Below are positions 29,993 to 52,110 of a stretch of 64,000 bases of DNA, one piece after another (position 1 is the stretch's first letter; each line of letters opens with the position of its first letter). Position numbers and translations under genes: made by a program. The notes under the pieces were generated by a model, which saw only the letters and a program-made list of their open reading frames with translations, did not search any database and had not been told where the DNA came from. The DNA is from a virus: positions 1-64,000 of the IMG/VR virus record IMGVR_UViG_3300023202_000383, one strand, 5' to 3'.

Positions 29993-30634
29993 ATGATTAC
30001 CGGCATCACACAATTCGGGTTGGAGGGGCGTGTAGCAACGGTGGATCACGACCCGGCTATCGTGTCGACCGATGTCCCCGCAGGTTCGATTATCCTGTCG
30101 ACCTCCACAGGATTGCTCTACCGAAAACTCACCGGCGGCAGCAACACGGATGTGTTGCCGATGACCGCTTCCAGTCAGCCGTTCGATTGGGACAGCGGGG
30201 CGTCGGCGGTCGCGGCGGTCGTCGCGGCCGGGATGCTGTCGCTCGAATTGCTTGCCGATACCGACTCGAAGGTAGTCGGCGGCGACGTTGCCCCGCTGCA
30301 CGTCGACCTCGATCAGGCGTTGGAGCTTGACGTCAAGATCGTCACCCTCAGCTTGGGCGACGCGTCGGCCGACGCGCACCTGCGGCTGACGGCCCGCTAC
30401 GTGGGGTTGGGCGAGGCGGCGGACAAGACGCCCGACGAGACGATCGACCACATCTTTGAAGTCGCCAACGTAGATAAGTGCGTGCACGCCGTGACGTTCA
30501 CACTGGACCCGTCGCTTATCTCCCCCGAAGACCTGCTAAACCTGGAGCTGTCGCGGCTGGGCACGTCAGCGAGTGACGTGTTTACCGGCTCCATCGGCGT
30601 TGCCGAGAGGTCGCTGCTGAGGTTCTTTAACTGA
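29993..30634 (+). CDS. Tail-fibre/virion-like protein (GC-rich module)
   Basis: 213 aa. GC-rich, Asp/Ala/Leu-rich, with beta-strand repeats (VHAVTFTLDPSLISPEDLL) typical of phage fibre or decoration proteins. Starts one base after the preceding stop; the next gene begins in the last base of its stop. No specific receptor-binding fold recognised. Confidence 0.6.
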   Translation: MITGITQFGLEGRVATVDHDPAIVSTDVPAGSIILSTSTGLLYRKLTGGSNTDVLPMTASSQPFDWDSGASAVAAVVAAGMLSLELLADTDSKVVGGDVAPLHVDLDQALELDVKIVTLSLGDASADAHLRLTARYVGLGEAADKTPDETIDHIFEVANVDKCVHAVTFTLDPSLISPEDLLNLELSRLGTSASDVFTGSIGVAERSLLRFFN

Positions 30635-31164
30635 TGGCAAGCACGTACGAACTGATACTGTTCCGCGAGGAGACCCGAGACGACGGGAAGGTGGCGTTGC
30701 TGCGTATCCCGTTGGTGGCCGGTGCGGGGATCGACCTCGACGCGGTGATCGGGGAGGTATCCGCCGGTAGCGGTGTGAGCGTGCAGGAGGGATACGCCGA
30801 GAGCGAAGGGACCAGTTCGACGACCAGCACCAACTTTCAGCAAAAGCTCCGCGCCAGCTTGACGGGTCTAGACGCCGGTACGTATGAGGTGGCGTGGTCT
30901 TGTGAGGTGTTGCCCGGCAAAAACAATCTGGCTGCCCGCGTGCGGGTTCAAGTGGATGACACGACGACGCTAAACAGCCCTGACCCGGTCCTCAATCGAG
31001 ACAATAGCGGGGGCAACGTGAAGGGCTGGATGCCTCTCAGTGGGTTCCGTCAATTGGCATTGAGCGCCGGGGATCATGACTTCGACATCGACTTTGCTTC
31101 ACCTCAGAACGGAAAGTCAGTAGATATCCGGTTTGCGCGTATCAAAATAGCGAGGACAAATTAA
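30634..31164 (+). CDS. Tail-fibre distal/virion-like protein (GC-rich module)
   Basis: 176 aa. Serine/threonine-rich start, then a beta-sandwich-like sequence (AGTYEVAWSCEVLPG, DHDFDIDFASP, VDIRFARIKIA) of the kind seen in small carbohydrate-binding fibre heads. Overlaps the preceding gene by one base and is followed immediately by a GTG-start gene. Confidence 0.55.
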   Translation: MASTYELILFREETRDDGKVALLRIPLVAGAGIDLDAVIGEVSAGSGVSVQEGYAESEGTSSTTSTNFQQKLRASLTGLDAGTYEVAWSCEVLPGKNNLAARVRVQVDDTTTLNSPDPVLNRDNSGGNVKGWMPLSGFRQLALSAGDHDFDIDFASPQNGKSVDIRFARIKIARTN

Positions 31165-32106
31165 GTGGCCGAGCAAGCATACACGTACAGCATCGCCAGC
31201 GACTTCCCGTCGGGCGCGGTCAACACGCAGAAGCTGCACGACGAGGTCGTGGCCGACACGGCGATCACGACGCAGCTCGACCGCATCGACACCGACGGCG
31301 ACGGCTTGTCAATCGTGTTTCAGGCGGCGCTGTCGGCGGCGGAGAAGACGGCGCTGGACGGCGACACGACCGGACCGGCCGGGGGGCTGATCGCGCAGCA
31401 CGACAACAGCGCGTCCGCCCCCGACTACGGGAAGATGCAGATCGACGGGATCTCCCCGGACGCCAACGGCTCGCTGCCGCAGGCCCCGATCATCTCCACG
31501 CCGGGCCACCGGCTCAACGACCGCGACGTGCTGGTGCGGGTGGGCGAGTTCGACAACCCGTTCGAGGACCTGCGGGTCAACCCCGACGACAACAAGGAAG
31601 TGGCGTGGGGCGAGGTCACGTGCGACCCGGCCGACACCGATCCGGCGAACAAGACCGGGGTATTCAAGCTCGACGGCAACGGCGACTGGGTCCGCTGCAC
31701 CGACCAGACCGACGCGGCCGCCAACGCCGGGCTCACGGTCCTGGAGTACCAGGCCCGGCAGGGCGGCGTGGCCGGGGGCGATGCGCTCAAGTACGACGTG
31801 CGGGGCGGGACGCTGTGGGTCGACTCCAACGTGCCGGACGACGGCGACCGCTGGTCGCACCGCGTCTATTCGGTCGGTGCCCCGGACCTGTCGGCCGTCC
31901 TCGGCGGCCGGGTGCCGTTCTTCGACGGTTACCTGTTTCCCTATCGCAACAACTGGATGCAGACGCTCAATCCCGTGGCGTTCCCGATGGATCCGTCGGC
32001 GTCGGCGGCGGCGAGCATCGTCCGCGTGTGGTTCTATTACAAGGCGGGCACGGCGTACGAGCACGTGCTGCGGTTCCACCTGTACCGACCGACCGGAAGC
32101 TGGTAG
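31165..32106 (+). CDS. Tail-fibre-like protein (GC-rich module, GTG start)
   Basis: 313 aa from a GTG directly after the preceding stop. YTYSIASDFPSGAVNTQKLHDEV at the start resembles the virion-attachment repeat found in fibre proteins of siphoviruses and myoviruses, and the C-terminus is a jelly-roll-like beta domain. The most GC-rich gene in the window. It probably determines host binding (inference). Confidence 0.6.
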   Translation: MAEQAYTYSIASDFPSGAVNTQKLHDEVVADTAITTQLDRIDTDGDGLSIVFQAALSAAEKTALDGDTTGPAGGLIAQHDNSASAPDYGKMQIDGISPDANGSLPQAPIISTPGHRLNDRDVLVRVGEFDNPFEDLRVNPDDNKEVAWGEVTCDPADTDPANKTGVFKLDGNGDWVRCTDQTDAAANAGLTVLEYQARQGGVAGGDALKYDVRGGTLWVDSNVPDDGDRWSHRVYSVGAPDLSAVLGGRVPFFDGYLFPYRNNWMQTLNPVAFPMDPSASAAASIVRVWFYYKAGTAYEHVLRFHLYRPTGSW

Positions 32107-33529: not shown

Positions 33530-33702
33530 AAGACGTCGGCAAAGCCAAACTGGAATCAGAGAAAGCTTTAACTGAGTATCTAAAATGCCAGCAAGAACTG
33601 CTGGTAATGATCAATAAACAAATGGATCTGGGAAGAATCTACGCTGAGAAGAGAGCCGAATATTTGGCTTTGAAAGAAGATAATGAGCCAGGAATTGATT
33701 AA
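33526..33702 (+). CDS. Small helical protein, 58 aa (GTG start)
   Basis: A GTG at 33526 overlaps the upstream TGA (GTGA). The frame runs 58 codons: a charged amphipathic helix rich in Lys, Glu and Leu (KAKLESEKALTEYLKCQQE). It ends overlapping the convergent endonuclease stop by four bases. No family recognised, but coupling and codon usage support it. Confidence 0.5.
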   Translation: MKDVGKAKLESEKALTEYLKCQQELLVMINKQMDLGRIYAEKRAEYLALKEDNEPGID

Positions 33703-35327
33703 GGTTTCAATATAAATTTATAATGTCCAGCATCCCACAGTCTTCTATATTTATTATTAAACATATTTTCGGCCTCGGTAAGACGCGAGTCGAAATTTTC
33801 TAGTAATTTTGATAATTTGTGTTTTTGAAAGTGTTGGCGAGAATACAATATCGATGTGTTGCCGTCTTTATAATATTTATAATTTGGCTTAGTTAAACCG
33901 CATGGTTTGAATCCTAATTTTTTATATAAATTTCCTGTCGAATATCTTGCGTCTGCATATGTTAAAATTGATTTTGGGTCATGTAATGCTATAAAATGAT
34001 TTAGTAGTTTTCCTGCTCCCCCGATAGCTGTTGAACCTATAGCTTGTGCGTATCTTATTATTTCCCATTTATATTTATGGTGCTTGGCAAAAGACATGCA
34101 TGCGACTAATTCTCCATTATATGTTAATCCAATTCTTACCGATGCATCCCGCGATCCATATATATGGTTTTCAGTCATAAATGAATCGTAATCTTTTGTG
34201 TTCAACGATATTATTTTACATTTTCTGGCGTATAATTTTGATGAATACCCAAGTTTATGATTTATTATTGATTTGACTATATTTTGTTTGTTTGACCATT
34301 CGTCCTCGTTTATTTGCAGAAGTTGTATATTGTTTTCTACGCATCTAGTATGTTTAGCTTGATGTTTAAATCTTTCGTCTTTTGATTCAGTATGGTTGTA
34401 TGAATGGTAATATAACCCATTATATTCGATAGCTACGTTATGATTTGGCAGATAGATATCGATTTCTAATGGATATATTGTCTTTCTATCGTTAATAATA
34501 TATTCAGTATTTATCGATTTTATATATTCTATTATTTCTTGGTGTGGTTTAGAAATCGAGTTAGAGCATTTAGGGCATCCGTGTCCGTTTAAATGATTAC
34601 TTACTGTTTGGGAAAAATTGCCGTGTATGATACATGTTATTGTGATTGGTTCCATGTACCCGCTGTAATTGGATTTGTCATATGAATATTTGTCGCCGTG
34701 GATCGATATTGCTCTATTTATTATATCTTCTGTTGTAGGTGTGTTTATTGCACATTTAGGGCAACCGTGGCCTTCGAGGTGCCTTCTGGTTAATTGTTTA
34801 AATTTGCCATGTTTCGGGCATTTTATTATTATGTGACTTCGATATGATTTATATATCGAATCGCTATAATCATATTTGTTATTGTGTAATTTTGATGATT
34901 TATTTATAAAATCGTCAATTGTATTACTTAAATTTTTTATTCCGCATAATTTGCACCCATACTTTCCGTAGATGTGTGATTTTGGTGTTTGTTCGAATTC
35001 GCCGTGTTCTGGGCATATTATTGTGATTTTTGTATAGCTATTGACATACTCAGATTTACTATAATCATACTTATCGCCGTGCACTAATGTTGCTTTTTCT
35101 ATAAATTTATTTAGTGGCAATTTAAGATTTTGTTTTTGTTGTTGCCTAAAACATTTTTTGCATCTTGCGCCTTTTTTGTGATTTCTAGCGCGTTGTCTAA
35201 ACTCTCCGTGTTCCGGGCATATTATTGTGACGCGTCCGCTCAATTCAATTTCTGTAACCTTTGAATAGTCATACTTGTTATTGTGTATCAGGGATGATTC
35301 ATGTATAAAGCGTTGTAATTTATTCAT
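33699..35327 (-). CDS. Hef-like homing endonuclease (DUF723 repeats, EDxHD/Vsr-like nuclease, acyltransferase-like C-terminus)
   Basis: About 542 aa from the ATG at 35327. Four or five tandem DUF723-type units (HGDKYDYSK ... CPEHGEF ... H..G.GCPKC) form the DNA-binding half. LEIDIYLPNHNVAIEYNGLYYH is an EDxHD/Vsr-like nuclease core. The C-terminal 150 residues (SFMTENHIYG ... TYADARYSTGNLYKKLGF) are an acyltransferase-like domain, ending with the signature FQKHKLSKLL ... WDAGHYKF tail. It is convergent with small genes and divergent from the polymerase gene, consistent with a free-standing mobile nuclease next to its target. Confidence 0.85.
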   Translation of the reverse strand: MNKLQRFIHESSLIHNNKYDYSKVTEIELSGRVTIICPEHGEFRQRARNHKKGARCKKCFRQQQKQNLKLPLNKFIEKATLVHGDKYDYSKSEYVNSYTKITIICPEHGEFEQTPKSHIYGKYGCKLCGIKNLSNTIDDFINKSSKLHNNKYDYSDSIYKSYRSHIIIKCPKHGKFKQLTRRHLEGHGCPKCAINTPTTEDIINRAISIHGDKYSYDKSNYSGYMEPITITCIIHGNFSQTVSNHLNGHGCPKCSNSISKPHQEIIEYIKSINTEYIINDRKTIYPLEIDIYLPNHNVAIEYNGLYYHSYNHTESKDERFKHQAKHTRCVENNIQLLQINEDEWSNKQNIVKSIINHKLGYSSKLYARKCKIISLNTKDYDSFMTENHIYGSRDASVRIGLTYNGELVACMSFAKHHKYKWEIIRYAQAIGSTAIGGAGKLLNHFIALHDPKSILTYADARYSTGNLYKKLGFKPCGLTKPNYKYYKDGNTSILYSRQHFQKHKLSKLLENFDSRLTEAENMFNNKYRRLWDAGHYKFILKP

Positions 35328-35385
35328 AATAAAATATCTTTGATTACAGATAGATCCTCTGCATTGCGTGTTGTATTTTATATAC

Positions 35386-36747
35386 ATGGTTGACATAATG
35401 AAATATAATGGTCCTACAGACTTTGCTCATCTTCATGTCCATACTTTATATAGTACGCTTGATGGGGTTCAATCTCCAGAAGAATTGTTTTCTACGTGCA
35501 AAGAAAGAGGATGGAGTGCGTTAGCCGTAACCGAGCATGGGACATTGGCATCAGTCCCAGACAATTATGCGGCTGCAAAAGAATACGGCGTAAAGTATAT
35601 AGTTGCTTGCGAAATTTATTACAATGATTATGAACCGACTAGGCAAGATCTTGTTAAAGAAGATGTTAAAATTCGCAAGCTAAAAGAAACCGACCCTAAT
35701 TTTTATTATAAAATGTCTAGAAATAGGCATTTAACAGTCCTTGCTAAAAACGATAAGGGTGTGGAGAACATAATAAAATTGACCACTCAAGCGTGGGAGA
35801 CTGGATTTTATTATAGGCCGAGGATATGGTTTGATAAATTAGATGAATATAGAGAGGGTTTATTGGTATTGAGTGGATGTTTAAATGGGCCTGTTTCTCA
35901 TGAGTTAAGACATGGGAATTTAAGGTCTGATGATATGAGAGGTGCATTAGACTATATACATAAATTCAAAGAAGTATTTGGCGATGATTATTTTGTAGAA
36001 TTGCAGATGCCTTGTCTTCCTGATTTTCCTGACCACAAAGTCTTCCGTGCATTAAATCATATAGCTAACAAGTACAATATACCGAAAGTTCTTACAAATG
36101 ACGCACATTATCTAAATCGTGAAGACTTTGAAATCCAGAAATTAATGATGGCTATATCCCAGGGTTTAACTGTTGATGATCCGAATCTGTTCCATGTAAA
36201 TAGTGATGAGCAATATCTTAAAACCAGAGCAGATCTATGGCACACATTTAAGACTGGGAAAGACGGCAAATATTGTGAATATGTGACTGATAGCGAATTT
36301 GAAGATATGTGCAACAACACATTGGTAGTTGCCGGTAAATGTGATAATTTCGAACCTGATTTGTCGTCGAAGGTTCCTACATTAGATAATGACGAGCAGA
36401 TCTTAAGAACCCTTGTGTACGATAGGCTTAAGCAAGAGGGATTCGATAAAGATGAAACTAAGTACAATATAGACAATAAAGAAGTTACTTATAGAGAACA
36501 AGCCGACATAGAATTGAATAGGTTTATTGAGAAGAATTTCGCCAGCTATTTCTTGATAACCAGAGATTTGGTGCAGTATAGTTTAGATAACGGTTGGCCT
36601 GTTGGACCGCGAGGTTCAGTTGGCGGCAGTCTAGTGTGTTATTTATTGGGCATAACCGAGTTGGATCCAATAAAATGGAATTTATCGTTTAACAGGTTTT
36701 TAAGCCCCTCGCGCGGAGGAAAGATGCTAAACATTAAGGCAGAATAG
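35386..36747 (+). CDS. dnaE: DNA polymerase III alpha, N-terminal piece (PHP domain plus start of palm)
   Basis: 453 aa. HLHVHTLYSTLDG, VTEHGT, VLSGCLNG and LTNDAHYL are intact PHP metal-binding motifs, suggesting proofreading-type or pyrophosphatase activity. The C-terminus reaches GPRGSVGGSLVCYLLG and SFNRFLSPSRGGKM, where normal DnaE continues directly into the catalytic PDxDxD. Here it reads LNIKAE and stops. An ATG at 35398 is an alternative start. The catalytic Asp pair lies in a separate gene at 39423, so polymerase activity needs assembly of the pieces. Confidence 0.88.
   Translation: MVDIMKYNGPTDFAHLHVHTLYSTLDGVQSPEELFSTCKERGWSALAVTEHGTLASVPDNYAAAKEYGVKYIVACEIYYNDYEPTRQDLVKEDVKIRKLKETDPNFYYKMSRNRHLTVLAKNDKGVENIIKLTTQAWETGFYYRPRIWFDKLDEYREGLLVLSGCLNGPVSHELRHGNLRSDDMRGALDYIHKFKEVFGDDYFVELQMPCLPDFPDHKVFRALNHIANKYNIPKVLTNDAHYLNREDFEIQKLMMAISQGLTVDDPNLFHVNSDEQYLKTRADLWHTFKTGKDGKYCEYVTDSEFEDMCNNTLVVAGKCDNFEPDLSSKVPTLDNDEQILRTLVYDRLKQEGFDKDETKYNIDNKEVTYREQADIELNRFIEKNFASYFLITRDLVQYSLDNGWPVGPRGSVGGSLVCYLLGITELDPIKWNLSFNRFLSPSRGGKMLNIKAE
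36733..36746. repeat. 14-bp direct repeat flanking the homing endonuclease, copy 1 (copy 2 at 38615-38628)
   Basis: ATTAAGGCAGAATA occurs at the end of the polymerase N-terminal gene and again just before the gene at 38629. An extended TAAACATTAAG segment is shared too (36728-36738 and 38604-38614). Removing the interval would place the ATG at 38629 immediately after the polymerase stop, as expected if the endonuclease gene is an insertion. Confidence 0.8.
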
Positions 36748-36777
36748 GTCTAATTCAGTTATAAGCAAATATATAAT

Positions 36778-38613
36778 ATGATAAATGTACAACGAAGCAA
36801 AGAAGTGTTTGGATTAAAAAGCATCAATAGGATTCCTAAAAAACAGAAAGTTATATGTAATTGTGATGTTTGTGGGGTTGAATCACGTATTACTAAGCAG
36901 CACCATTATATATGCAGCAAACGTGCTGGTTTATATAGATGTAAAGATTGTGGTAGAAAAGCCATGGCATCTAAAGTATCAAAAGCCATGATATCAAAAT
37001 GGCAAAACGACAAATACAAATCCAAGCAGATTGGCAGGACTCATAGCGATGAATTAAAGGAATATGCTAGGCAGAGAGCTATCAAATTGTGGAAAGATAA
37101 AGAATATGTGGCAAAGTATAATGCTGGGTTTGACCCGGCCAAGGCTAGAAAGAATCTAAAGGCCACCAGATCGGTTGCCAATAAAGCTGCATCGCTTGCT
37201 ATGGCTGATAAATGGCAGGAAAAAGAATATCGCAGTAAAATGTCAGATCAATCAGCTAAGCTATGGAGTAACGATTGTTATAGAAACAAAGTAATAAGTA
37301 GCCTCAAAAAACATTATTCGTCATTAGAAGTTTTAGATAGATGTTCAAATAGAGCGAAAAAATTGTGGAAGAATAATGATTATAGGGATAGGTGGTTCAA
37401 ATCATTTATGCAATCATTTGGCAATGAAAGGTTACACGAAATTTCATTACAAAGTGCCAAGAATTGGGGAGACCGAGAATATAGAGATAAAATAGAATCA
37501 CAATGGGACGATCAAAAACGTGCAGAAATGTCCGAAATATGTAAAGAATGGTGGACTGATGATAGGAGAGCTGAAGTTTCTGAGATTATGATAAGTAGGT
37601 GGTCGGACCCTAATTTTAGAAAGAAAACAATAAAAGCATTTATTGATTCATGGACTGAAGAACGCAGGCAGGCTGCTAAAGATTCATGGACTGAAGAACG
37701 CAGGCAGGCTGCGTCTGATAGATCCAGGAATTTGTGGAAAGATCCGAAATATGTTAGCAAGATGGTTGATATGATCGGGAGGCCGTCGTCTTTAGAAATT
37801 CAATTCGCCAGCTTATTGGATGATTATGGCATCGAGTACACGCAACAGTTCCATTTAGGGCCATATTTATTTGATTTTAAGGTCAACGATGTCTTAATAG
37901 AAATTAATGGCGATTATTGGCATAGATTGCCGAAGACAATATCAAAAGACAAGGCTAAAGCTACTTATGTTGAAAAACATTATCAGCAATATCAGCTTAA
38001 GTATTTATGGGAGCATGAATTTTATCAATTAGAAAAGATTAATAAATTTATTGAATTCAGTTTTGTTGGTTCTGACGTAGAAGAGGTTGATTTTTCAGAA
38101 TTAAAATTTGTTACTGATATAGATTATGATTCAATAAAATCGTTAATTGAGAAATATCATTATAAAGGAAGTATTGGTCGGGGTGGGGTGTATTATGGTG
38201 TTATATATCGTGGTAATTTGATCGCTGGGTCTGTTGTTGGGTCACCAACTAGGAATGTTGTTGGTGGCGAGTTGTTACGATTTGTTATACACCCACAGTA
38301 TCAGGTCAAGAATCTTGCATCGTGGTTTTTGAGTAGAATCTCAAAGCATGCTTTGAGAGATTATGATTTATTGTTTACATTTGCTGATCCGAATTTTAAC
38401 AATTACGGCACAATATATGAGGCTAGCGGCTGGGAATTTGCTGGCGAAACAAAATCAGATTATTGGTATGTTAGCGAAGACGGTTGGGTTATGCATAAAA
38501 AGACTTTATGGAATAGAGCAAAGAATTTATGTATGTCAGAAAGGTATTTTGCTGAGGTTTTTGGATATAATCGGGTATATGGGTTGCCAAAGAGAAAGTA
38601 TATTAAACATTAA
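36778..38613 (+). CDS. Free-standing EDxHD/Vsr-like homing endonuclease inserted in the fractured polymerase
   Basis: 611 aa. An N-terminal Cys/His zinc finger (CNCDVCG ... YRCKDCG) is followed by seven or more NUMOD-like repeats (KLWKDKEYV, KLWSNDCYR, NLWKDPKYV). The nuclease core LEIQFASLLDD ... LFDFKVNDVLIEINGDYWH is the EDxHD/Vsr-like family described for fractured phage genes. A C-terminal acyltransferase-like domain follows. It lies between the first and second polymerase pieces and is flanked by 14-bp direct repeats. It contains an internal 30-bp tandem duplication (DSWTEERRQAA twice). Confidence 0.85.
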   Translation: MINVQRSKEVFGLKSINRIPKKQKVICNCDVCGVESRITKQHHYICSKRAGLYRCKDCGRKAMASKVSKAMISKWQNDKYKSKQIGRTHSDELKEYARQRAIKLWKDKEYVAKYNAGFDPAKARKNLKATRSVANKAASLAMADKWQEKEYRSKMSDQSAKLWSNDCYRNKVISSLKKHYSSLEVLDRCSNRAKKLWKNNDYRDRWFKSFMQSFGNERLHEISLQSAKNWGDREYRDKIESQWDDQKRAEMSEICKEWWTDDRRAEVSEIMISRWSDPNFRKKTIKAFIDSWTEERRQAAKDSWTEERRQAASDRSRNLWKDPKYVSKMVDMIGRPSSLEIQFASLLDDYGIEYTQQFHLGPYLFDFKVNDVLIEINGDYWHRLPKTISKDKAKATYVEKHYQQYQLKYLWEHEFYQLEKINKFIEFSFVGSDVEEVDFSELKFVTDIDYDSIKSLIEKYHYKGSIGRGGVYYGVIYRGNLIAGSVVGSPTRNVVGGELLRFVIHPQYQVKNLASWFLSRISKHALRDYDLLFTFADPNFNNYGTIYEASGWEFAGETKSDYWYVSEDGWVMHKKTLWNRAKNLCMSERYFAEVFGYNRVYGLPKRKYIKH

Positions 38614-38628
38614 GATTAAGGCAGAATA

Positions 38629-39015
38629 ATGGATAAGAATCAGATTAAGTTAGGAATAACATCTATACAGCGATCCGTTGTTGTGTGCAATAGGTTGGGG
38701 CTGTTTGAAGCAGCGTCGGCTGCTGTTTACAGTATGATAGATGCTATAAACGCTTTGGTAGAAGGCAACGAAGAAACTGCTGCTGAAGATTGTTTCAAAT
38801 CATCGTTTCTGATATATAAGGTTTTGTACGAATCATTTTCTGAAAAGTTTGAGAAGAGATCCAGTCTAGCGGAAGACGCGGAGAAAATTCTGAAAGAATC
38901 CAATGATTGGAATGCATTTGCAAAAGCGTCCAGTAATTATATGGATGCAATAGCAGAGGTTGTACATGGAACGGAATTCGAGGCCGAATTCTTGAAATTT
39001 AAAGTTGGCTCCTGA
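38629..39015 (+). CDS. Hypothetical helical protein, 128 aa
   Basis: All-helical, Ala/Ser/Glu-rich. No family recognised. Its ATG lies directly after the second 14-bp repeat, so before the endonuclease inserted it would have followed the polymerase N-terminal gene without a gap. It overlaps the next gene by 11 bases. Possibly a polymerase accessory. Confidence 0.55.
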   Translation: MDKNQIKLGITSIQRSVVVCNRLGLFEAASAAVYSMIDAINALVEGNEETAAEDCFKSSFLIYKVLYESFSEKFEKRSSLAEDAEKILKESNDWNAFAKASSNYMDAIAEVVHGTEFEAEFLKFKVGS

Positions 39016-39496
39016 TAAAATAGACATATATTGCTTTGCTAGAGGCAAGGATAGTCCATACGCATATGGCATCCTTGTGGTCGCACATTATGGCGAAGAG
39101 TGTAAAGAGCACGAGAAATTTGGTTTCGTAGATGCGAAAACGCCTACTGAGGCCAATATCAAGATAATATTGATGGCGTTGAAGTCCGTTAAAGATGACT
39201 TTAAGGACCTCGATATCACTCTTCATGTAAGAAAATCTGCATTTTATTGTGTTGATAGAACATCTTGGGGAACCTATAGAACAAAGCCAACCAGACATCA
39301 TAAACTGATAGGTGCGGTGAGAAGTTTGTTTGACGAGCTTCCTAATGCAAGATCAAAGATGATATTCTCCAAATACCAAAAGTATGCTAAAAGATGTATA
39401 AAAAAGTCTAGGAGCATGTTTCATGCGAAACGACGCGAGTTGGGACGATATAAAGGTGATAGCGGTCAAGGAGCTCGTCCAGAAAAAGCTACCTAA
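39005..39496 (+). CDS. Possible RNase H-fold protein, 163 aa (TTG start)
   Basis: A TTG start overlaps the preceding gene. IDIYCFARGKDSPYAYGILVVAHYG ... DAKTPTEANIKIILMALKSV ... ITLHVRKSAF follows the strand-strand-helix-strand order of RNase HI, but the usual Asp and Glu catalytic residues are not in place (first Asp replaced in CFARGKD). It is probably an inactive or divergent RNase H-like fold, perhaps a polymerase partner. It overlaps the polymerase catalytic piece by 74 bases. Weak assignment. Confidence 0.4.
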   Translation: MAPDKIDIYCFARGKDSPYAYGILVVAHYGEECKEHEKFGFVDAKTPTEANIKIILMALKSVKDDFKDLDITLHVRKSAFYCVDRTSWGTYRTKPTRHHKLIGAVRSLFDELPNARSKMIFSKYQKYAKRCIKKSRSMFHAKRRELGRYKGDSGQGARPEKAT

Positions 39497-41192
39497 CGAG
39501 TATAAGTCTAGATTTAAGACAGAAATAAAAGAGATCGAAAAGCAAGGTGCCAATGCCTATTGGCAGCAGCTATATAACGAAGATCACAAATACGACACGA
39601 ATAACAATGGTTTGGTCTTGCCCTGGATATTAGGCATGACCGATGTTGATCCTTTAAAATCAGACCATCAATATACAAGGTCGACGGACTGGCCTGACAT
39701 AGATGTTGACTGCTTACCGACAGCCAGAGATAGGATCAAAGAATATGCTGCAGAGAAATATGGCAAAGACAAAGTCTGTAGCGTAGGGTTGTGGCAGACA
39801 TATAAATTTAGGTCAGCATTACAAGACTCTGTTAGAGGTGTTGGTGGTAATGTCAAAGAAATCATGGACATCACTAAGCAGTTGCCGGATGATGTTGACG
39901 ATCTGAAAGATGGTGGTTTTGCAAAGTGCACTGAATGTAAAACGAAGCATAATGAGCATAAATGCCCAGAATGTGGATCAACAGAAATAGATGGGATCAC
40001 ATTTGGGAAGGTGATAGAAGATCATGAAGAATTAAAGAAATATTATGGAGAGCATCCTAAAGAAGTCAATCTAGCCGTTAGAATGATAGGAAAAATAAAA
40101 GCGCTGGGTAAACACGCTGGCGGCCTTATTATATCTGATAGAGTGCTATTCGGAAATGTCCCTATGGGCGTTTCAAATGGCCATTGGACAAGTTTGTGGA
40201 CTGAAGGCAGGAGTACTCAATTATCTAAATTCGGGTATATTAAGTGGGATATGCTTGGCCTTAAAACTTTGCAGTATATTCATGAGTGCTGCAAATTAAT
40301 CAATAAAACCAGAAATTACAAGTTTAATGTTATTCCATGGAAAGGAATGGACCCATGGGAAAACTGTCTTGGATACTATTGGGATAATAATGGCGTAAAA
40401 CACAAAGTGAGGATGGATGACGAAAAAACCTTTGAGATGATGAACGCCATAAGGACCGATACAGTATTCCAATTCGACACGGCACTGCAGAAGAAGATTT
40501 TAGAAAATGGCGTAAACAGCTTTTATGATTTACAGATATTTAATGCAATGGGCCACCCAGGTCCGTTGCCAATGATCGATGAGTATGTAGCTCGACGTGA
40601 CAATGAGGACTACGATTGGAAGAGCGAGGAGCATCCTGATGTTGCATCGTTGCTTAAAGACACAAAGGGTATCATAGTATATCAGGAGCAATTGCAGAAG
40701 ATCTGGCAACATTTGGCTAAATTCACGGCTCCCGAAGCTGAATCTGCGAGGAAGGCTGTTGCTAAGAAATGGACGGAAAAACTAAAGCCTGTTGAGGAGA
40801 AGTGGGTAAGGGGCGCATCTAAGATAATGGGCGAGCGGCGGGCTAAAGATTACTGGGGGAAGATGAAAACTTTCGGTAGGTATGCCTTCAATAAATGCCT
40901 GGACAAAGATACTATATTAGAAGATCCTACAAATGGCAATACTATAACTGTTGAAGAGCTTTTTGAATCTAAATCGAGCTTTAAATTAGAATCTTATTGT
41001 GATGATGGATTTGTGGTCGATGACGTTGATGAGATAATCGAATGCGGTGAACAAGATATTTATGAAATAGAATTAGATAATGGGGCGATTCAGAAAGTCA
41101 CTTTGAATCATAAGTTTAGGTGCGATGATGGAAAATACTGGACAGTCAAAGAAATCATCGAAGGCAATTATTCCATCGTGGTTCGACCATAA
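39423..41192 (+). CDS. dnaE: DNA polymerase III alpha, catalytic piece fused to split-intein N-fragment
   Basis: 589 aa. Residues 91-96 are PDIDVD, the catalytic Asp pair of C-family polymerases, and KWDMLGL near residue 274 supplies the third Asp. A four-Cys zinc ribbon (CTECKTKHNEHKCPECG), unusual for DnaE, lies near residue 165. The N-terminal 80 residues (ILGMTDVDPL) repeat in degenerate form a region already encoded at the end of the first piece. The extein ends at FGRYAFNK. From Cys at 40896 the sequence is an intein N-fragment. A stop at 41190 ends the protein, so trans-splicing with the piece at 41923 is needed. Confidence 0.85.
   Translation: MRNDASWDDIKVIAVKELVQKKLPNEYKSRFKTEIKEIEKQGANAYWQQLYNEDHKYDTNNNGLVLPWILGMTDVDPLKSDHQYTRSTDWPDIDVDCLPTARDRIKEYAAEKYGKDKVCSVGLWQTYKFRSALQDSVRGVGGNVKEIMDITKQLPDDVDDLKDGGFAKCTECKTKHNEHKCPECGSTEIDGITFGKVIEDHEELKKYYGEHPKEVNLAVRMIGKIKALGKHAGGLIISDRVLFGNVPMGVSNGHWTSLWTEGRSTQLSKFGYIKWDMLGLKTLQYIHECCKLINKTRNYKFNVIPWKGMDPWENCLGYYWDNNGVKHKVRMDDEKTFEMMNAIRTDTVFQFDTALQKKILENGVNSFYDLQIFNAMGHPGPLPMIDEYVARRDNEDYDWKSEEHPDVASLLKDTKGIIVYQEQLQKIWQHLAKFTAPEAESARKAVAKKWTEKLKPVEEKWVRGASKIMGERRAKDYWGKMKTFGRYAFNKCLDKDTILEDPTNGNTITVEELFESKSSFKLESYCDDGFVVDDVDEIIECGEQDIYEIELDNGAIQKVTLNHKFRCDDGKYWTVKEIIEGNYSIVVRP
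40896..41189 (+). other. Split-intein N-fragment in DnaE (site FNK|S)
   Basis: 98 codons beginning with Cys1 (CLDKDTILED), with block B-like IYEIELDNG and VTLNHKFRCDDGKYW (TxxH form) and ending ..GNYSIVVRP before a stop. Size and ending match natural split inteins such as the gp41/NrdJ type. Its C-partner lies at 41923-42054, 730 bases downstream. Confidence 0.75.
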
Positions 41193-41942
41193 AATTATAA
41201 GCTACAATGATAATATAAAAAGTAATGATACAATAAAATCAATATGTTCAATATGCGGCGATAAAACAAGTAGAAAATTTATCGAACATAAAAGGCTGTG
41301 CAATAGGCAATCAAGATATGTTAGCTCATATCGGTGCCGGTCTTGCCTGACAAAGTCAGATGATTACAAAATCAAAATAAAAAAAGCTGAATTCGACACA
41401 GATGCTATGAGTAAGAGGTCAAAAAAGCATTGGGCTAATTTATCAAAGCACGATCGTAAGGCATTAACTAGCAAGATAACAGCCAAATTAAGAACTGATG
41501 CTGTAAGAGAAAAAATTAGCAAGTCTATAAAAGAAAAATTTGACGATCCAGATTATATTCGTAAAGTTTCGGAGGCGAGAAAGAAATATTGGGAAAATTA
41601 TGAATATAGGAAAAATAGGACGTTATCGATAGATGAATTTATAGAGAGATCTAAGTCAGTTCATGGCGATAAGTATGATTATTCGAAAGTTCAATTCGAT
41701 TCTGCCAGGAATTCTAAAGTTGATATTATATGTCCAGATCATGGTGTCTTCCGACAAAGACCGTTATGGCATTATTTGTATGGTAATGGGTGCCCAGATT
41801 GTTAGACAAGAATTCCAAAAGCACAAACTTAGCGGTAAATTAGACAATTTTGATAGTAATTTGACTGAACTACAGAATATGTTCAATAATGGATATAGGG
41901 TGGGATGCTGGACACAATAAATATGAATGGAAACGTAGCTAA
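41125..41942 (+). pseudogene. Decayed homing endonuclease between split-intein halves
   Basis: The frame 41125-41805 keeps an N-terminal zinc finger (CSICGDKT ... YRCRSC), a NUMOD-like helix array and one DUF723 unit (VHGDKYDYSK ... CPDHGVF ... GNGCPDC). It then stops. A different frame resumes with QEFQKHKLSGKLDNFDSNL, and a third with GWDAGHNKYEW, which are the C-terminal tail of the endonucleases at 33699 and 63349. The nuclease and acyltransferase domains are deleted, so this is a remnant that marks a former homing insertion in the intein. Confidence 0.7.
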
Positions 41943-42054
41943 AATAAAGTCTATAAAATATGTCGGTAAAAGAAGATCATACAACATATGTATGGAATCT
42001 AGCCAACATAATTATTTAATAAAACCATCTAGCGGGCAACCTATTCATAAAAAT
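41923..42054 (+). other. Split-intein C-fragment in DnaE
   Basis: 44 codons ending in ..PIHKN before Ser. Block F is HNYLI. Together with the N-fragment at 40896 it would total about 142 residues, a mini-intein size. The combined interval is not a multiple of three, which excludes a single contiguous intein gene. Confidence 0.72.
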
Positions 42055-43071
42055 TCCCATAGCATAGGCTATATAACGGAGGCATATTGGTGTGCATGGT
42101 TAAAGGCTCACTTTCCGCCAGAATGGTGGGCGTCTGTTATGAGTTATTGCCACCATGTGAGACTCAAGAGATACATGAATGTGGCAAGGTCTGAGGGCGT
42201 TAAATTTGGTCCTATAAATATAGAGGACCTGTCACCATATTATTCAGTCGACCCAGAGACGCATAAAGTCACTCCTGGTCTTATAAGCATAAAGGGGATC
42301 GGCCAGAAAGCTGCAGACAAACTGTCTGGTAAAGGAAAGTATGATAATATAGATGATTTCGTGGATAAATTTGGAAAAGACAAAAGGGTGATGGAAAGAT
42401 TGATACTTCTTGGTGCTTTTCAGAAATACCACCCAAATATAAAAGCCACTTGGATTTGGTACCAATATAAATATTGTAGTGGCGCTGCCTCTAGAGAAAT
42501 CAAGAAGCACATTAAGTCTGAACTGCTGGCTGACTGGACCGATGAGAGAATTGAACAAGAACGCAAAAGACAGGCGGATGAATATTTTAAATTGTATCCA
42601 AATAGGCGTAAGCTTCCGAATAAGATAGCCAACTGGAATCCTAAGCCTGATGATACAAGAGAAAATGTTATGGCATTGATAGAAGACGATTATGCTAATG
42701 CCGAAAAATTCAATTTTGAAAAGGAATATCTAGGGTACTATTGGAGGAATCCAATAGAATATTTTAAGACTGATTCAGATAATACAATTATAAATGCCAA
42801 GAAGAATGGTGGGGGGTTCATAGATGTAGTGATAGAGTCTTTCGAAATAGCGGAGACTCGCAAAGGAGGATTATTCGGCAGGTTGGCAGTAATGGATGGC
42901 AGCACAGCCTGTAACGTATACATGTGGGAAGGCGAGCTCGATGCCTCTGAGAGCTTCATCGATGACGGGATAGGTATTAGACTAAATGTTGATTATAACG
43001 ACGGAAGAAGGACATTCTCAGTCAAGAGAGGATCAGTTCCTGTGATACTTGAGATGTCTGAGGACCAGTAG
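41923..43071 (+). CDS. dnaE: DNA polymerase III alpha, C-terminal piece with split-intein C-fragment
   Basis: 382 aa from ATG 41923 (ATG 41905 also possible). Residues 1-44 are an intein C-fragment: KIKSIKYVGKRRSYNICMES, the block F QHNYLI and a terminal PIHKN, then extein Ser42055. The extein SHSIGYITEAYW ... WLKAHFPPEWWASVM matches DnaE after the canonical FNK|SH site. A helix-hairpin-helix (ISIKGIGQKAADKL) and an OB-type region (FGRLAVMDGSTACNVYMWEG) follow. The DnaE is short and lacks a tau-binding tail. Penultimate Lys in HKN instead of the usual HN is unusual. Confidence 0.85.
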   Translation: MNGNVAKIKSIKYVGKRRSYNICMESSQHNYLIKPSSGQPIHKNSHSIGYITEAYWCAWLKAHFPPEWWASVMSYCHHVRLKRYMNVARSEGVKFGPINIEDLSPYYSVDPETHKVTPGLISIKGIGQKAADKLSGKGKYDNIDDFVDKFGKDKRVMERLILLGAFQKYHPNIKATWIWYQYKYCSGAASREIKKHIKSELLADWTDERIEQERKRQADEYFKLYPNRRKLPNKIANWNPKPDDTRENVMALIEDDYANAEKFNFEKEYLGYYWRNPIEYFKTDSDNTIINAKKNGGGFIDVVIESFEIAETRKGGLFGRLAVMDGSTACNVYMWEGELDASESFIDDGIGIRLNVDYNDGRRTFSVKRGSVPVILEMSEDQ

Positions 43072-47487: not shown

Positions 47488-47590
47488 TAGACTCCCTCAT
47501 ATGGAAATTTCTAAAATTATTTTTGATAACGGTCTAAAAATATTTACTCACAATGTGCTATTTAAGCAGTATTAGATGTCAGGAGGCAAC

Positions 47591-49741
47591 ATGGCTAAAG
47601 GCAAAAAAGAAAGCAAGACAGACTATTCGAACATGGACATAGACAGTCTGATGAGTAGTCTTAACAAGAAATATGGTGAGGGGTCTGTGCAGAAGTATGA
47701 TAGGGCCGCAATAGTGTCGTGCGATACTATAAGCACTGGCGTGGCCACTTTAGATGATGCTTTGCATATTGGCGGAGTACCTAAAGGGCGGGTAATAGAA
47801 ATCTATGGCCCCGAATCTGGCGGCAAGACTACTCTATCTCTGTCTATCGTAGCCGAATGCCAGGCTGCCGGTGGGACAGCGGCATTTATTGATGCTGAGC
47901 ACGCGTTGGATGTTCAGTGGGCGCACGACATTGGTGTTGATGTAGAATCATTGCTGATAAGCCAGCCGGATTCTGGCGAGCAGGCGTTGGAAATCTGCGA
48001 AGCTATGGTTAGATCGAACAAGTTTGGTATTATAGTGGTTGATTCGGTTGCAGCCCTTGTTCCTAAAGCCGAAATTGATGGTGAAATGGGCGATGCCCAT
48101 GTTGGTCTGCAGGCCAGGATGATTAGTCAGGGTATGAGAAAGCTATCTGGTGCAGTTAAGACCAGCAATACATGCTTGGTATTTATTAATCAGCTTCGCG
48201 AGAAGATCGGCGTGATGTTTGGGTGTTTACATGCTGACAATCTTATAAATTTTTCGGATGGCAAGTCGGCCACAATAAAAGACGTTGTTGATAATAAAAT
48301 CAAAGGATCAGTATGGTCTTATGATGAGGAATTAGACGAATTTTGTGAATGCCAGATTACTGATTGGCATTTCAATGGTGAAGTCAGTAATCCAGAGGAT
48401 TATTTATCTATTTCAATAAAAGGATCTGGTAATAAAAATGGGCGAATGAATATAATTGTGACGCCCGACCACGATGTGCTTACTGATTATGGCTGGGTTC
48501 GGGCAACCGATCTGGATATCGGAGACAAATTAATAACCAAGCAGCAAGATGTTATGTGTGGTGATTTAGGAAATTTTCTTAGAGGGACATTGTCTGGCGA
48601 TTCGCATATATCTCAAGCGGATGGGCACCTGTGTGCAAGTTTGAAAATCAGGGATAATATTGATATTAATTATGCAAAATGGAAGGCAAATAAGTTGTCT
48701 GCAATCAGTATGACCAAAAAGACTTATGGTAAATATGATATATATACTTCTGGGCAATTTTCTCAATTTGTTGACATAAAAGAAGATTTCCCAAACAGGG
48801 ACCCTATGCTTTTGTTGAGTAGTTTTAGTTGGCTTGGTTTTGCTATATGGATAATGGATGATGCTTGTTATAATAGAAGTAGATATGTTTTGTCTATTAA
48901 AAGGCTAAAAGGCGACCATAAAAAGATCGATGAAATTAGTAAGACACTAGACGACCTAGGCTTATATCATCATTCTAGTTATGGCGGGAAAATCACGTTC
49001 GACAAAGACATATCTGATATGATTGCCCATAAGATAGCCAAATATGTTCCTATATGTATGCGTCATAAATTACCAAATGACGTTGAATTAGATAATTATT
49101 GCGAATTTGAATTGAAGAATTCAACGAAGCAGTGCAAGACTTATGCAGAGGTTGTTGATATACGTACCGCAAGCAATAGACAAATGAAAAATGTCGGAAA
49201 ATATGATATTTCAGTGGACAGATGCCACAATTATTCCGTTGGTGGGAGACATAATGGCGTTATTGTGCACAATTCGCCCGAAACAACGCCTGGCGGTAGG
49301 GCACTGAAATTCTATGCATCAGTTAGGCTAGATGTTAGACGTACTGGAATAGAAAAAGACGGCGATACGCCGATTGGAAGTAAGGTTAGGGTAAAAGTTG
49401 TTAAGAACAAAGTGGCTCCGCCATTCTCGCAGGCTGAATTTGTTATATACTATGGCAAAGACGAGATGCCAGTATATGGTCCTGATAAGTTCGGATCCAT
49501 CTTAGATATGGCGGTAGATAAGGATATTGTTGGTAAAAGCGGGTCGTGGTATGAGTATAATGGCGATAAAATAGGGAATGGTAGGACTAACGCTGTAAGA
49601 TTCTTACAGGATTCTGATTCAGTGTCTGAGGAAATCAAAGCTAAATTGGCCGATCTTAGGAAAGCGCGTGTTGCTGAGGTCAATGAGGCCGATGAAGTTG
49701 ATGAAATCAAAGACGAAGACACAGAATCGGAAGGTGATTGA
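47591..49741 (+). CDS. recA: RecA recombinase interrupted by an intein
   Basis: 716 aa precursor from ATG 47591, preceded by [23 protein letters not shown] (Walker A), a DSVAALVPK strand and [14 protein letters not shown] are RecA core motifs. The protein continues after the intein with [20 protein letters not shown]. The extein is about 366 aa, ending in an acidic tail, close to bacterial RecA length. T4-like phages usually use UvsX; a bacterial-type RecA here is notable. The intein is in frame, so cis-splicing should restore the enzyme. Confidence 0.92.
48224..49273 (+). other. RecA intein with LAGLIDADG endonuclease domain
   Basis: 350 codons. Begins with Cys1 ([13 protein letters not shown]) after ..GVMFG, has [13 protein letters not shown] (TxxH block B), [12 protein letters not shown] and [12 protein letters not shown] as the two LAGLIDADG-like helices, [15 protein letters not shown] (block F) and ends GVIVHN before Ser. 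All canonical splicing residues (Cys1, His, terminal HN, Ser+1) are present, so it looks active. Confidence 0.9.
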
Positions 49742-50091
49742 TGGCACCATTTAGGCCACGATTTTCAGTTGGAGATATTGTATATCTCGTTGAATCTGCT
49801 AAGTTAGGATCACTAGAATCTTATACAATAGCTGAAGTGCGGCAGGATTTAAGGGGCCAGGCGATTTATAGAATTGGAATTCCTGCGAGGCCACCTACTG
49901 CTTTGCAAACGGTTGGCGACAGAATTACTTTAAAGAGAAGCTTCGATTTTGAGCTTAGTGAGTCTGAATTAACAGATTTATGTAGTGCTATTGAATTCGC
50001 AAAGGCTGCTTTGGAGCGGCAGCTCGCTAGAATTAATGATATTTCCGATAAGTTCTGCAGCGATGAGACTGATGGGACAGGTACTGAATGA
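49741..50091 (+). CDS. Hypothetical small beta-barrel-like protein, 116 aa
   Basis: PRFSVGDIVYLVESAKLGSLESYTI resembles an SH3/KOW-like strand set (FSVGDhVhhh), followed by a helical C-terminus. It overlaps RecA by one base and the helicase gene by four, so it belongs to the recA-dnaB operon and may be a recombination or helicase accessory. Weak assignment. Confidence 0.5.
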   Translation: MAPFRPRFSVGDIVYLVESAKLGSLESYTIAEVRQDLRGQAIYRIGIPARPPTALQTVGDRITLKRSFDFELSESELTDLCSAIEFAKAALERQLARINDISDKFCSDETDGTGTE

Positions 50092-50921
50092 GCTTAAAGG
50101 CTCTTGAAAATGATGAGCCGAACGACTCGCCGTTTGGTAATTATGAAGAAGAAGCAATAGCTTCCTTGATTTTAGACCATCCTGAATTTTTCACCCATAT
50201 TGCCAAATTTATAACATATAAACTTTTCAAAAGACCTGAAGTACAGTATATTATTGCAAATATTGTTGAATACCATGACAAGTACAATGAATTCCCTACT
50301 AGGGGAATATTGAAAGACACTATAGCCAAACAGTTGACCGTTGATGATGAATATGTAGACGATATATTATCTATCGTAGACAGGCCATCGAATCCCAGAG
50401 AAATACCAGCAATAAAAGACAGATTGTTAGAATGGGCAAAGACTCAAGCATATAGTTTGCTTTGGGACAAAGAAACAATTGATAGGTACAAGCAAGGCGA
50501 TTATGACTATATAGAACAGGTAGTGAATGAAGCGAAGCTGATACAGGACGTTAGTTCTACGGGACTGTGGTTCTTTGATGAACTGGAAAGTTTATTCTAT
50601 AGAGACGAGAAAGAAAGATTCACAACTGGGATTTATGAATTAGATCAATTGCTAGACGAAGGCGGACCATCCAGAGGCGATGAAGTAGTATGGATGGCAC
50701 CGACGGGTGTCGGCAAATGCCATACTCTAGAATCAAAGATGATTGAAGAAAATTTGTCAGGAATCTTTGAAATAGAGCTAGACAATGGCAAGACTCTCAA
50801 ACTCGCAGGATTTAGAGAAGTTCAAACAGCACGTGGGCCAGTAAAGGTCTGCGATCTTACCGAAGAAGACGATATTGTCGAGATACCAAATATCAGAGAT
50901 GGGGGGGATATATCTGTGTAA
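50088..50921 (+). CDS. dnaB: DnaB-like replicative helicase, N-terminal piece ending in a split-intein N-fragment
   Basis: 277 aa. A helical DnaB/gp41-type N-terminal domain leads to TTGIYELDQLLDEGGPSRGDE and WMAPTGVGK. Directly after the GK of the Walker A motif comes Cys and intein sequence, then a stop at 50919. The Ser that completes GK[ST] is at 51424 in the next gene. A run of seven G (50901-50907) just before the stop could allow slippage, but all frames hit stops before 51010, so two proteins joined by trans-splicing is the simpler reading. Confidence 0.85.
   Translation: MSLKALENDEPNDSPFGNYEEEAIASLILDHPEFFTHIAKFITYKLFKRPEVQYIIANIVEYHDKYNEFPTRGILKDTIAKQLTVDDEYVDDILSIVDRPSNPREIPAIKDRLLEWAKTQAYSLLWDKETIDRYKQGDYDYIEQVVNEAKLIQDVSSTGLWFFDELESLFYRDEKERFTTGIYELDQLLDEGGPSRGDEVVWMAPTGVGKCHTLESKMIEENLSGIFEIELDNGKTLKLAGFREVQTARGPVKVCDLTEEDDIVEIPNIRDGGDISV
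50718..50918 (+). other. Split-intein N-fragment in DnaB (Walker A site GVGK|S)
   Basis: 67 codons beginning CHTLESKMIEENLSG, then FEIELDNGKTLKLAGF and GPVKVCDLTEEDDIVEIP, the strands typical of an intein N-terminal half, although the block B His is missing here and appears in the downstream fragment (CDPNHK). This unusual division distinguishes it from the DnaE intein. Confidence 0.6.
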
Positions 50922-51009
50922 GCATTGCGAATTCTCTACGATCTCATCGATTTTAATCATATAAGCTCCAAACATGGAAGGCTGAACGACAATCTAAGGA
51001 AATTTATAC

Positions 51010-51423
51010 GTGAAAATAAAATCAATTAATAAGACTAACCAATATAAGCATGTGGACTTCGGGATGCTTGCTGAACGATGGAATAAGTCTAGGGTTCTTA
51101 CGCCAACTGGATTTGAAGAGGTAAAAGCATTCGATTTAATAAAACGAGATGCCCCCACTTTATTGCTTAGCATAGATAATGGTATGGAGATTAAGTGTGA
51201 TCCAAATCATAAAATTGTCTGTGAATCATACAAATCGGACAGTGAGACCAGTGAAATAATAGAGAAGTTCGTTAAAGACTTAGACCCAGGCACAGACAAG
51301 CTGATAGGATATGGTGGTCAACGTAGGTCATTCGAAGTGCGTGATGGTGGTACGCACGATCTATATGATATCGAAATTTGTTCGCCACATTTGTATTATA
51401 CAGCTGGCGTTTTGAGCCATAAT
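51010..51423 (+). other. Split-intein C-fragment in DnaB (138 residues)
   Basis: Contains RVLTPTGFEEVKAFDL and SIDNGMEIKCDPNHKIV, normally part of intein N-halves, then ..HDLYDIEICSPHLYYTAG (block F) and VLSHN before Ser. A long C-fragment with a short N-fragment is reminiscent of atypically split inteins. Splicing residues HN|S are intact. Confidence 0.65.
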
Positions 51424-52110
51424 AGCATTATGCTAGTCAATAATGCGATTGCTAACTCAAAAAAGAGCAAGAATGTTTTATATATAACTTTGGAATTGTC
51501 CCATTTAAAATCTGCGTTGAGAGGCTTAGGCGCATTGTCAAATAAATCGATAGTTGGAGAGAGCAGATTTGACAATAAAGATGATATGATAGATGTTGCC
51601 AGAAAGGTAAAAGCGAGTGGTGCTGGCGATATCGTTTTTTATCAGTACCCACCGGAAGAAATAGATGTTGATACAATATATGCATTGATAGACACTCTTA
51701 GAAAAAACGAGAAATGGCACCCAGATGTTGTAATAATTGATTATCTCGAATTAATGCTCAGTCGAAGAGACTCAGATAACTCCGAAGATTACATTAGACA
51801 AAAGAATGTTTCTACTCAGATAAGAGGCTTGGCTATTAATGAGAATGTTTGTGTCTTTACAGCCACACAAACCAATAGAAGTGGCAATGATGATAGCAAA
51901 ATGATAGATGTCACCAAGATATCTGAAAGCTATGGAAAATCTATGGCGATGGATTATTTGATAAGTATTAACCAATCACCAGATGAGTATTCGTCAACGC
52001 CAGCACAAGCCAGGTTATATGTTGCTAAAAACCGTAATGGCCCTAAATTCATAAGTATTCCAATCAAGATAAACTACAAAACAATGTCCGTTAAGGAGAT
52101 AGACCAATGA
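51010..52110 (+). CDS. dnaB: DnaB-like replicative helicase, C-terminal piece beginning with split-intein C-fragment
   Basis: 366 aa from a GTG at 51010 with an AAGGA nine bases upstream. Residues 1-138 are intein; the extein begins SIMLVNNAIANSKKSKNVL, restoring the Walker A. WHPDVVIIDYLELM is Walker B, QIRGLAINENVCVFTATQTNRSG is motif H3-like, and ..ARLYVAKNRNGPKF is the C-terminal RecA-fold arginine region. Thus the hexameric 5'-3' fork helicase is complete once spliced. Confidence 0.85.
   Translation: MKIKSINKTNQYKHVDFGMLAERWNKSRVLTPTGFEEVKAFDLIKRDAPTLLLSIDNGMEIKCDPNHKIVCESYKSDSETSEIIEKFVKDLDPGTDKLIGYGGQRRSFEVRDGGTHDLYDIEICSPHLYYTAGVLSHNSIMLVNNAIANSKKSKNVLYITLELSHLKSALRGLGALSNKSIVGESRFDNKDDMIDVARKVKASGAGDIVFYQYPPEEIDVDTIYALIDTLRKNEKWHPDVVIIDYLELMLSRRDSDNSEDYIRQKNVSTQIRGLAINENVCVFTATQTNRSGNDDSKMIDVTKISESYGKSMAMDYLISINQSPDEYSSTPAQARLYVAKNRNGPKFISIPIKINYKTMSVKEIDQ

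What the first reader, a model, noticed from the sequence alone, without database searches (positions are those of the whole stretch)
35386..43071. DNA polymerase III alpha fractured into three genes with a split intein
The catalytic PDIDVD lies 2.7 kb away from the PHP domain in a different gene, and the C-terminal part sits behind a split intein at the FNK|SH site. The intein halves are separated by a decayed homing endonuclease and cannot be read as one frame (interval not a multiple of three). This matches the known fractured-gene arrangement in phages, but here one DnaE has both an intein split and a non-intein break.
Basis: partly seen in the sequence, partly recalled or inferred. Interest (0 to 1): 0.85.

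Follow-up and report, generated by a model that had tools for sequence, protein, structure and literature searches.

The report
Two-gene DNA polymerase, further intein-split
This giant phage, like about a dozen related giant phages, makes its main-type DNA polymerase from two separately encoded proteins whose shared catalytic domain is divided between them, and in this phage a split self-splicing element has broken the second protein in two again.

Summary
The three-piece DnaE (DNA polymerase III alpha) is real. The two breaks are different things.

(1) mid|C: a genuine split intein at FNK|SHS, its halves around a gutted homing endonuclease (HEN) in another frame. Among the relatives only L024 has an intein there, so it is recent. 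It is an ordinary fractured gene.

(2) N|mid: not an accident. All 13 relatives found (contigs up to 408 kb, 45-67% identical) have the same break inside the palm domain. DnaE-N ends just after the dNTP-binding GS motif; DnaE-C starts before the catalytic PDIDVD. Small genes lie between, with no intein or recognised intron at this break. The genes keep complementary active-site residues and evolve together. DnaE-C opens with a conserved second copy of the palm-entry segment (~60 aa) lacking exactly the GS motif.

Best reading: a stable two-subunit DnaE, assembled non-covalently, with the second subunit restored here by protein trans-splicing. Neither assembly nor splicing is shown. A palm-split Pol III alpha is already described in other jumbo phages (Iyer 2021: minimal, no PHP, beside a family B polymerase), so this is a new variant of a known kind. 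I found no description of the PHP-bearing form, the overlapping GS-less repeat or the stacked intein breaks.

The parts
35386..36747 (+). dnaE-N: PHP domain plus first half of palm with GS motif (RGSVGGS); ends ..RFLSPSRGGKMLNIKAE
   Evidence: PF02811 1.8e-40 and PF07733 positions 8-98; structure model aligns residues 11-449 to Pol III alpha, Z 35.6
36448..36723 (+). palm-entry segment in dnaE-N, GS motif intact
   Evidence: N tail scores 89.9 bits against the single-gene palm-entry profile
36778..38613 (+). free-standing homing endonuclease (PD-(D/E)xK/Vsr-like by eye, C-terminal Mom-like domain), inserted right after the dnaE-N stop; absent at this place in L015
   Evidence: phrog_3339 1.9e-13, PF25680 6.1e-12
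36730..36746 (+). direct repeat, copy 1 (3' end of dnaE-N)
   Evidence: families D3/D7
38612..38628 (+). direct repeat, copy 2, restoring the TAATG junction to the next gene
38629..39015 (+). small helical ORF; weak match (29%) to an ORF of L015
39005..39496 (+). degenerate RNase H-like ORF; weakly similar ORFs lie between dnaE-N and dnaE-C in the other clade members examined
   Evidence: sub-cut-off PF13456 19.8 and PF00075 17.5 bits in relatives
39423..40895 (+). dnaE-C, first extein: GS-less palm-entry repeat, catalytic PDIDVD, thumb/fingers, ends YAFNK
   Evidence: PF07733 and PF17657; start codon fixed by alignment of 12 relatives
39480..39680 (+). head repeat: second copy of palm-entry segment without GS motif
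   Evidence: HMM 19.4 bits vs best of 180 shuffles 3.0; hhalign 96.7%
39693..39710 (+). catalytic motif PDIDVD
   Evidence: alignment
40896..41192 (+). intein N-half (98 aa, Cys1, TLNH block B) with stop
   Evidence: TIGR01445 above cut-off
41125..41920 (+). decayed homing endonuclease between intein halves (N-terminal part plus last ~40 aa, frames broken)
   Evidence: phrog_681 2.7e-10; ORFs
41905..42054 (+). intein C-half (50 aa), ends HKN|SHS
   Evidence: joined halves match 7qil 6.7e-8
42055..43071 (+). dnaE-C, second extein (HhH, OB-like C-terminus)
   Evidence: PF14579 2.8e-9; contiguous with the first extein in L015-L020 and L023

Best explanation
The locus encodes one DnaE-type polymerase made of two stably separate subunits. 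DnaE-N carries PHP and the dNTP-triphosphate-binding GS half of the palm. DnaE-C carries the catalytic aspartates, fingers, HhH and OB regions. They pair non-covalently to complete the palm. The split arose once in this jumbo-phage clade, probably through a partial tandem duplication of dnaE followed by complementary loss: the N copy kept the GS motif and the C copy kept the catalytic strand. In this phage DnaE-C has in addition been invaded by an intein whose HEN decayed, leaving a split intein that should trans-splice FNK to SHS. Shown: the sequence anatomy, conservation, co-inheritance and absence of another DnaE in the record. Inferred: assembly, polymerase activity, trans-splicing and the duplication route.
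For: All 13 relatives found (L015-L027) have the break at the same place and the same N-terminal end of DnaE-C. By contrast, 71 of 78 DnaE loci outside the clade are one ORF. DnaE-N keeps R409/G410/S411 and R437 as invariant columns; DnaE-C keeps D93/D95/D97, with K280/D282 nearly invariant (L015 numbering). The C head is a GS-less palm-entry repeat: 9 of 9 heads score 13.6-25.1 bits vs 3.0 for the best shuffle, hhalign 96.7%, and an N tail hits the C profile at 22.8 bits. The head is as conserved as the core palm (50.4% vs 52.2% mean identity). N and C trees agree and join the same single-gene lineage. The N model aligns to the PHP and palm of Pol III alpha at Z 35.6. In the isolated C model the PDIDVD loop, residues 83-99, is the main badly modelled stretch inside the protein, pLDDT under 50. 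Intein; contiguous inteins at the same FNK|S site exist in Rhodococcus phages NiceHouse and Trina. Precedent for split phage enzymes that work: NrdA of Aeh1 and gp43A/B of phage 25 (PMC2988022).
Against: No expression, binding or activity data. No complex could be modelled. The N and C palm-entry copies cannot both occupy the same canonical site; how the head packs is unknown (all DnaE-C alignments start at residue 90 or later). Penultimate intein residue is Lys instead of His (Ala in L024), which may slow splicing. A small PolA-like protein (52813-53985) is present in all relatives searched, so DnaE need not be the sole replicase.
Confidence: 0.78

Rival explanations
1. DnaE-C alone is a complete, altered polymerase whose GS-less head replaces the usual dNTP-binding loop, and DnaE-N is a separate PHP nuclease or regulator.
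For: The head sits where the palm entry should be in sequence and is strongly conserved.
Against: GS motif absent from every head but kept in every intact DnaE-N tail; palm-specific residues in N would have no reason to stay invariant; PDIDVD loop poorly modelled in isolated C.
Confidence: 0.12
2. The pieces are a decaying, non-functional dnaE displaced by the small PolA-like protein or the host polymerase.
For: Three pieces, HEN invasions, PolA-like gene in all relatives.
Against: Same architecture and active-site residues retained across at least 10 diverged phages at 45-67% identity.
Confidence: 0.04
3. N and C come from two different dnaE lineages (a chimera) rather than from one split gene.
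For: N has its best phage hits to human-gut and Streptomyces phages, the mid piece to LR756511.
Against: In trees both N (0.889) and C (0.986) group with the same LR756511/L014 lineage and have congruent branching.
Confidence: 0.05
4. N and C are joined at RNA or protein level by an unrecognised splicing element.
For: None beyond the break itself; inteins are common in this operon.
Against: Intervening genes vary (e.g. MazG in L015), no Rfam match, natural conserved termini on both proteins.
Confidence: 0.03

Closest known systems
Split minimal Pol III alpha of group 2.2 jumbo phages (Iyer et al. 2021, PMC7824862; N unit = PHROG 11127 in GAP32, 121Q, Atu_ph07)
   Same: Palm split between the GS/NTP-binding N unit and the Mg/template-binding C unit; the N unit ends at the same point
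   Different: No PHP, distantly located genes, accompanied by a family B polymerase. Here PHP is present, the genes share one cluster, the DnaE is long, and PolB is absent. Whether their C unit has a head repeat could not be tested
Fractured genes with split inteins and a HEN between (Dassa et al. 2009, NAR 37:2560, known to me and cited in PMC6892783; the paper itself is not held)
   Same: mid|C break: intein halves around a HEN, conserved insertion point, Ser+1
   Different: HEN is gutted; the N|mid break has no intein
Cyanobacterial split DnaE intein (Npu/Ssp)
   Same: Same host protein; halves match 7qil
   Different: Inserted after FNK instead of before CFN (cyanobacterial site from own knowledge)
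Cellulophaga phage phiST dnaE (L009)
   Same: Two genes broken between RFLN and PDIDTD
   Different: No GS-less head; the break lies in a small inserted beta module; distant lineage
Split gp43 and split NrdA of Aeromonas phages (PMC2988022)
   Same: Essential replication enzyme working as two polypeptides
   Different: Different enzyme families; NrdA was split by HEN insertion (gp43 origin unclear)

Membership tests
Pol III alpha / DnaE | PHP domain and C-family palm with GS motif and three Asp | tested here: met
   spread over two genes
Pol III alpha / DnaE | Active DNA polymerase | not testable with these tools
   needs biochemistry
Split intein / fractured gene | Intein N- and C-halves at a conserved extein site, separate frames | tested here: met
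   phases 0 and 1
Split intein / fractured gene | Cys/Ser1, TxxH, C-terminal Asn, Cys/Ser/Thr+1 | tested here: met
   C1, TLNH, N50, S+1; penultimate Lys is atypical
Split intein / fractured gene | HEN gene between halves | tested here: met
   Present but decayed
Split intein / fractured gene | Trans-splicing | not testable with these tools
   no expression data
Split intein / fractured gene (for the N|mid break) | Intein halves at the break | tested here: not met
   Intact relatives have conserved native termini
Iyer group 2.2 split minimal Pol III alpha | Palm split after GS motif into two proteins | tested here: met
Iyer group 2.2 split minimal Pol III alpha | Only minimal palm and template-binding domains, no PHP | tested here: not met
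   PHP 1.8e-40
Iyer group 2.2 split minimal Pol III alpha | Family B polymerase in the same phage | tested here: not met
   No PF00136 match in G000 or 8 relatives; GAP32, Atu_ph07 and 121Q positive

The most novel reading that the evidence does not exclude
A replicative-type DnaE whose palm is completed in trans by two subunits that each keep an overlapping, reciprocally degenerate copy of the palm entry. The GS-less head of DnaE-C would be a dedicated docking element, evolved after gene duplication with complementary loss.
Probability: 0.4. Interest if true: 0.75.

Novelty: new variant of a known kind. Interest (0 to 1): 0.62.

Why it matters
It offers a natural C-family DNA polymerase with dNTP-binding and catalytic halves on different proteins. 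That gives a ready split polymerase for biochemistry and a test of how an essential enzyme survives being cut through its active site. The overlapping GS-less repeat suggests a route (duplication then complementary loss) by which one enzyme becomes a two-subunit one. The clade also shows successive mobile-element fractures (two, three or four pieces) on top of the stable split.

Tried and rejected
Chimeric origin of N and C: rejected by trees. Group I/II intron or other known RNA at the breaks: no Rfam match. HEN insertion as the cause of the N|mid split: rejected, L015 lacks the HEN and has the split. Close relatives through exact peptide patterns of the window proteins: nothing; one DNA pattern for the catalytic motif: nothing. 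The C unit of group 2.2 phages: too divergent to be found, so comparison of heads is inconclusive. An N-only PHROG (7513) also ends at this point, but I could not identify its source phages. Plasmid search with the mid head gave only ordinary dnaE.

Full report
WHAT IS THERE. The window is positions 1-64000 of a 256,507-bp virus record. PF07733 matches only twice in the whole record, at the two palm halves, so no intact DnaE is present in what is held. The record is linear and may be incomplete.

THE INTEIN BREAK. The N-half (98 aa, Cys1, TLNH) passes the NCBIfam intein N-terminal model (29.4 bits, cut-off 24.5). The joined halves match Npu-type DnaE inteins in the PDB (7qil, E 6.7e-8). The C-half ends HKN|SHS. 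Splicing would restore YAFNKSHSIGY, the conserved DnaE motif. The halves lie in different frames, separated by a HEN of which only the zinc-finger N-terminus and the last ~40 residues remain, so the HEN has probably lost its catalytic part. Contiguous inteins occupy the same FNK|S site in Rhodococcus phages NiceHouse and Trina. In relative L024 the same site holds an intein inside an open 1261-aa frame that overlaps a LAGLIDADG-type HEN in another frame (HEN type by eye). L015-L020, L023 and L027 have no intein there. This break is therefore recent and of the known fractured-gene kind.

THE OTHER BREAK. A profile search with the N piece found 13 relatives, L015-L027, on IMG/VR contigs of 19 to 408 kb, 45-67% identical up to the last residues of DnaE-N (L018, L019 and L022 are nearly one phage). 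In every one DnaE-N ends right after the GS motif and the RFL segment (..SRGGxMLNVKM), and DnaE-C starts with MxxWxELxx..YxxRLxFEIKEIEKQGAxxYW. Between them lie one to five small genes that vary (a MazG in L015), often including a weak RNase H-like ORF. Of 78 DnaE loci outside the clade, 71 are one ORF. The break is thus inherited. The intact HEN at 36778-38613, flanked by a 17-bp repeat of the end of dnaE-N, is a later visitor.

THE OVERLAP. DnaE-N aligns to single-gene DnaE up to the RFL segment, and DnaE-C starts again ~60-90 residues earlier (Taq DnaE 359-461 against L015 residues 5-93; N reaches Taq 458). The head of DnaE-C is therefore a second copy of the palm entry. It lacks exactly the GPGRGSAAG stretch (hhalign 96.7%, P 4e-10). 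Nine of nine heads score 13.6-25.1 bits against a profile of single-gene palm entries, while the best of 180 shuffles scores 3.0. Independently, the N tail of the L020 phage hits the DnaE-C profile at 22.8 bits. The head is as conserved as the catalytic palm (50.4% vs 52.2% mean pairwise identity) and 22-35% identical to the N tail of the same phage, so the duplication is old.

ORIGIN. Trees of N and of C each recover the split clade with full support, have congruent inner branching, and join it to the single-gene DnaE of LR756511 (595 kb) and L014 (341 kb), with 0.889 (N) and 0.986 (C) support. That argues for one lineage that split, not two lineages combined. Tandem duplication with complementary loss is my inference from the overlap.

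HOW IT LIKELY WORKS. Active-site residues are shared out: GS-motif Arg/Gly/Ser and the RFL arginine in DnaE-N, the PDIDVD aspartates and the K/D of the third motif in DnaE-C. The AlphaFold model of DnaE-N (pLDDT 87.4) aligns over residues 11-449 with Pol III alpha, Z 35.6, rmsd 8.4, 389 residues. The DnaE-C model of L015 (pLDDT 83.1) aligns from residue 90 or later onward with Pol III alpha, Z up to 21.5. Its catalytic loop 83-99 is below pLDDT 50, consistent with, though not proof of, a need for the N subunit. No complex could be modelled here. Split phage enzymes that reassemble are known: NrdA of Aeh1 and gp43A/B of phage 25 (PMC2988022).

WHAT IS KNOWN. Iyer et al. 2021 (PMC7824862) described a minimal Pol III alpha in group 2.2 jumbo phages, split into NTP-binding and Mg/template-binding proteins encoded far apart, next to a family B polymerase. 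PHROG 11127 recovers their N unit in GAP32, 121Q and Atu_ph07, ending at the same point. Those phages have PolB; the window's phage and eight relatives do not, though all carry a small PolA-like protein. The present form has PHP, is encoded in one gene cluster and carries the head repeat. It fails two defining features of that minimal form and is filed as a new variant. Clean PHP|palm splits in Trina and LilyPad and the phiST split before PDIDTD show that dnaE tolerates breaks elsewhere.

FURTHER FRACTURES IN THE CLADE. L021 has four pieces: both genes carry intein halves, one in the GS motif and one in the fingers region. In L025, L026 and L140 the head is a separate ORF ending in a Hint-like half. 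The next ORF ends ..DLPDI-UAG, and the catalytic D(I/V)D continues two bases on, after a conserved CCGGAYATATAGAT (three contigs, ~70% DNA identity). This looks like recoding at the catalytic motif and deserves its own study.

LIMITS. Everything is sequence inference from metagenomic contigs. Pairing of the subunits, activity and splicing remain untested.

Noticed in passing
L025:12682-12830, L026:12726-13740, L140:1500-1680: dnaE-C has its catalytic motif across a frame change: ..CTTCCGGAYATATAGAT.., ORF stops at PDI-UAG and D(I/V)D continues 2 bases on; conserved in three contigs at ~70% DNA identity. Candidate +2 shift or short hop (AUA take-off and landing next to a stop).
   Followed up: partly
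L021:9893-21267: dnaE in four pieces: dnaE-N split by intein halves inside the GS motif with a HEN between, dnaE-C split by intein halves at HPGPM|..HN|SIPDV with several ORFs between.
   Followed up: partly
window 50088-52110: DnaB-like helicase split by an intein at P-loop GVGK|S; piece 2 also holds an extra Hint N-like segment before its C-half, an overlap resembling that of DnaE.
   Followed up: no
window 47576-49741: RecA with an in-frame contiguous intein at [11 protein letters not shown].
   Followed up: no
window 52813-53985: Small PolA-like protein (390 aa, motif C reads HDS), homologues in all relatives searched.
   Followed up: partly
window 36778-38613 and 33699-35396: HENs with a C-terminal Mom/GNAT-like domain; a remnant with the same C-terminus is at 63349-63894.
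   Followed up: no
window 36730-36746 / 38612-38628: HEN insertion flanked by a repeat of the end of dnaE-N that restores the TAATG overlap with the next gene.
   Followed up: partly
L106 (record G006, 86927-87589): The L020 phage has an additional divergent PHP-less DnaE-like ORF (561 aa) with GS motif and PDIDLD in one chain.
   Followed up: partly
window 30000-32000: GC-rich island (64% vs ~38% around it).
   Followed up: no
window 39005-39496: Degenerate RNase H-like ORF; weakly similar ORFs lie between dnaE-N and dnaE-C across the clade.
   Followed up: partly
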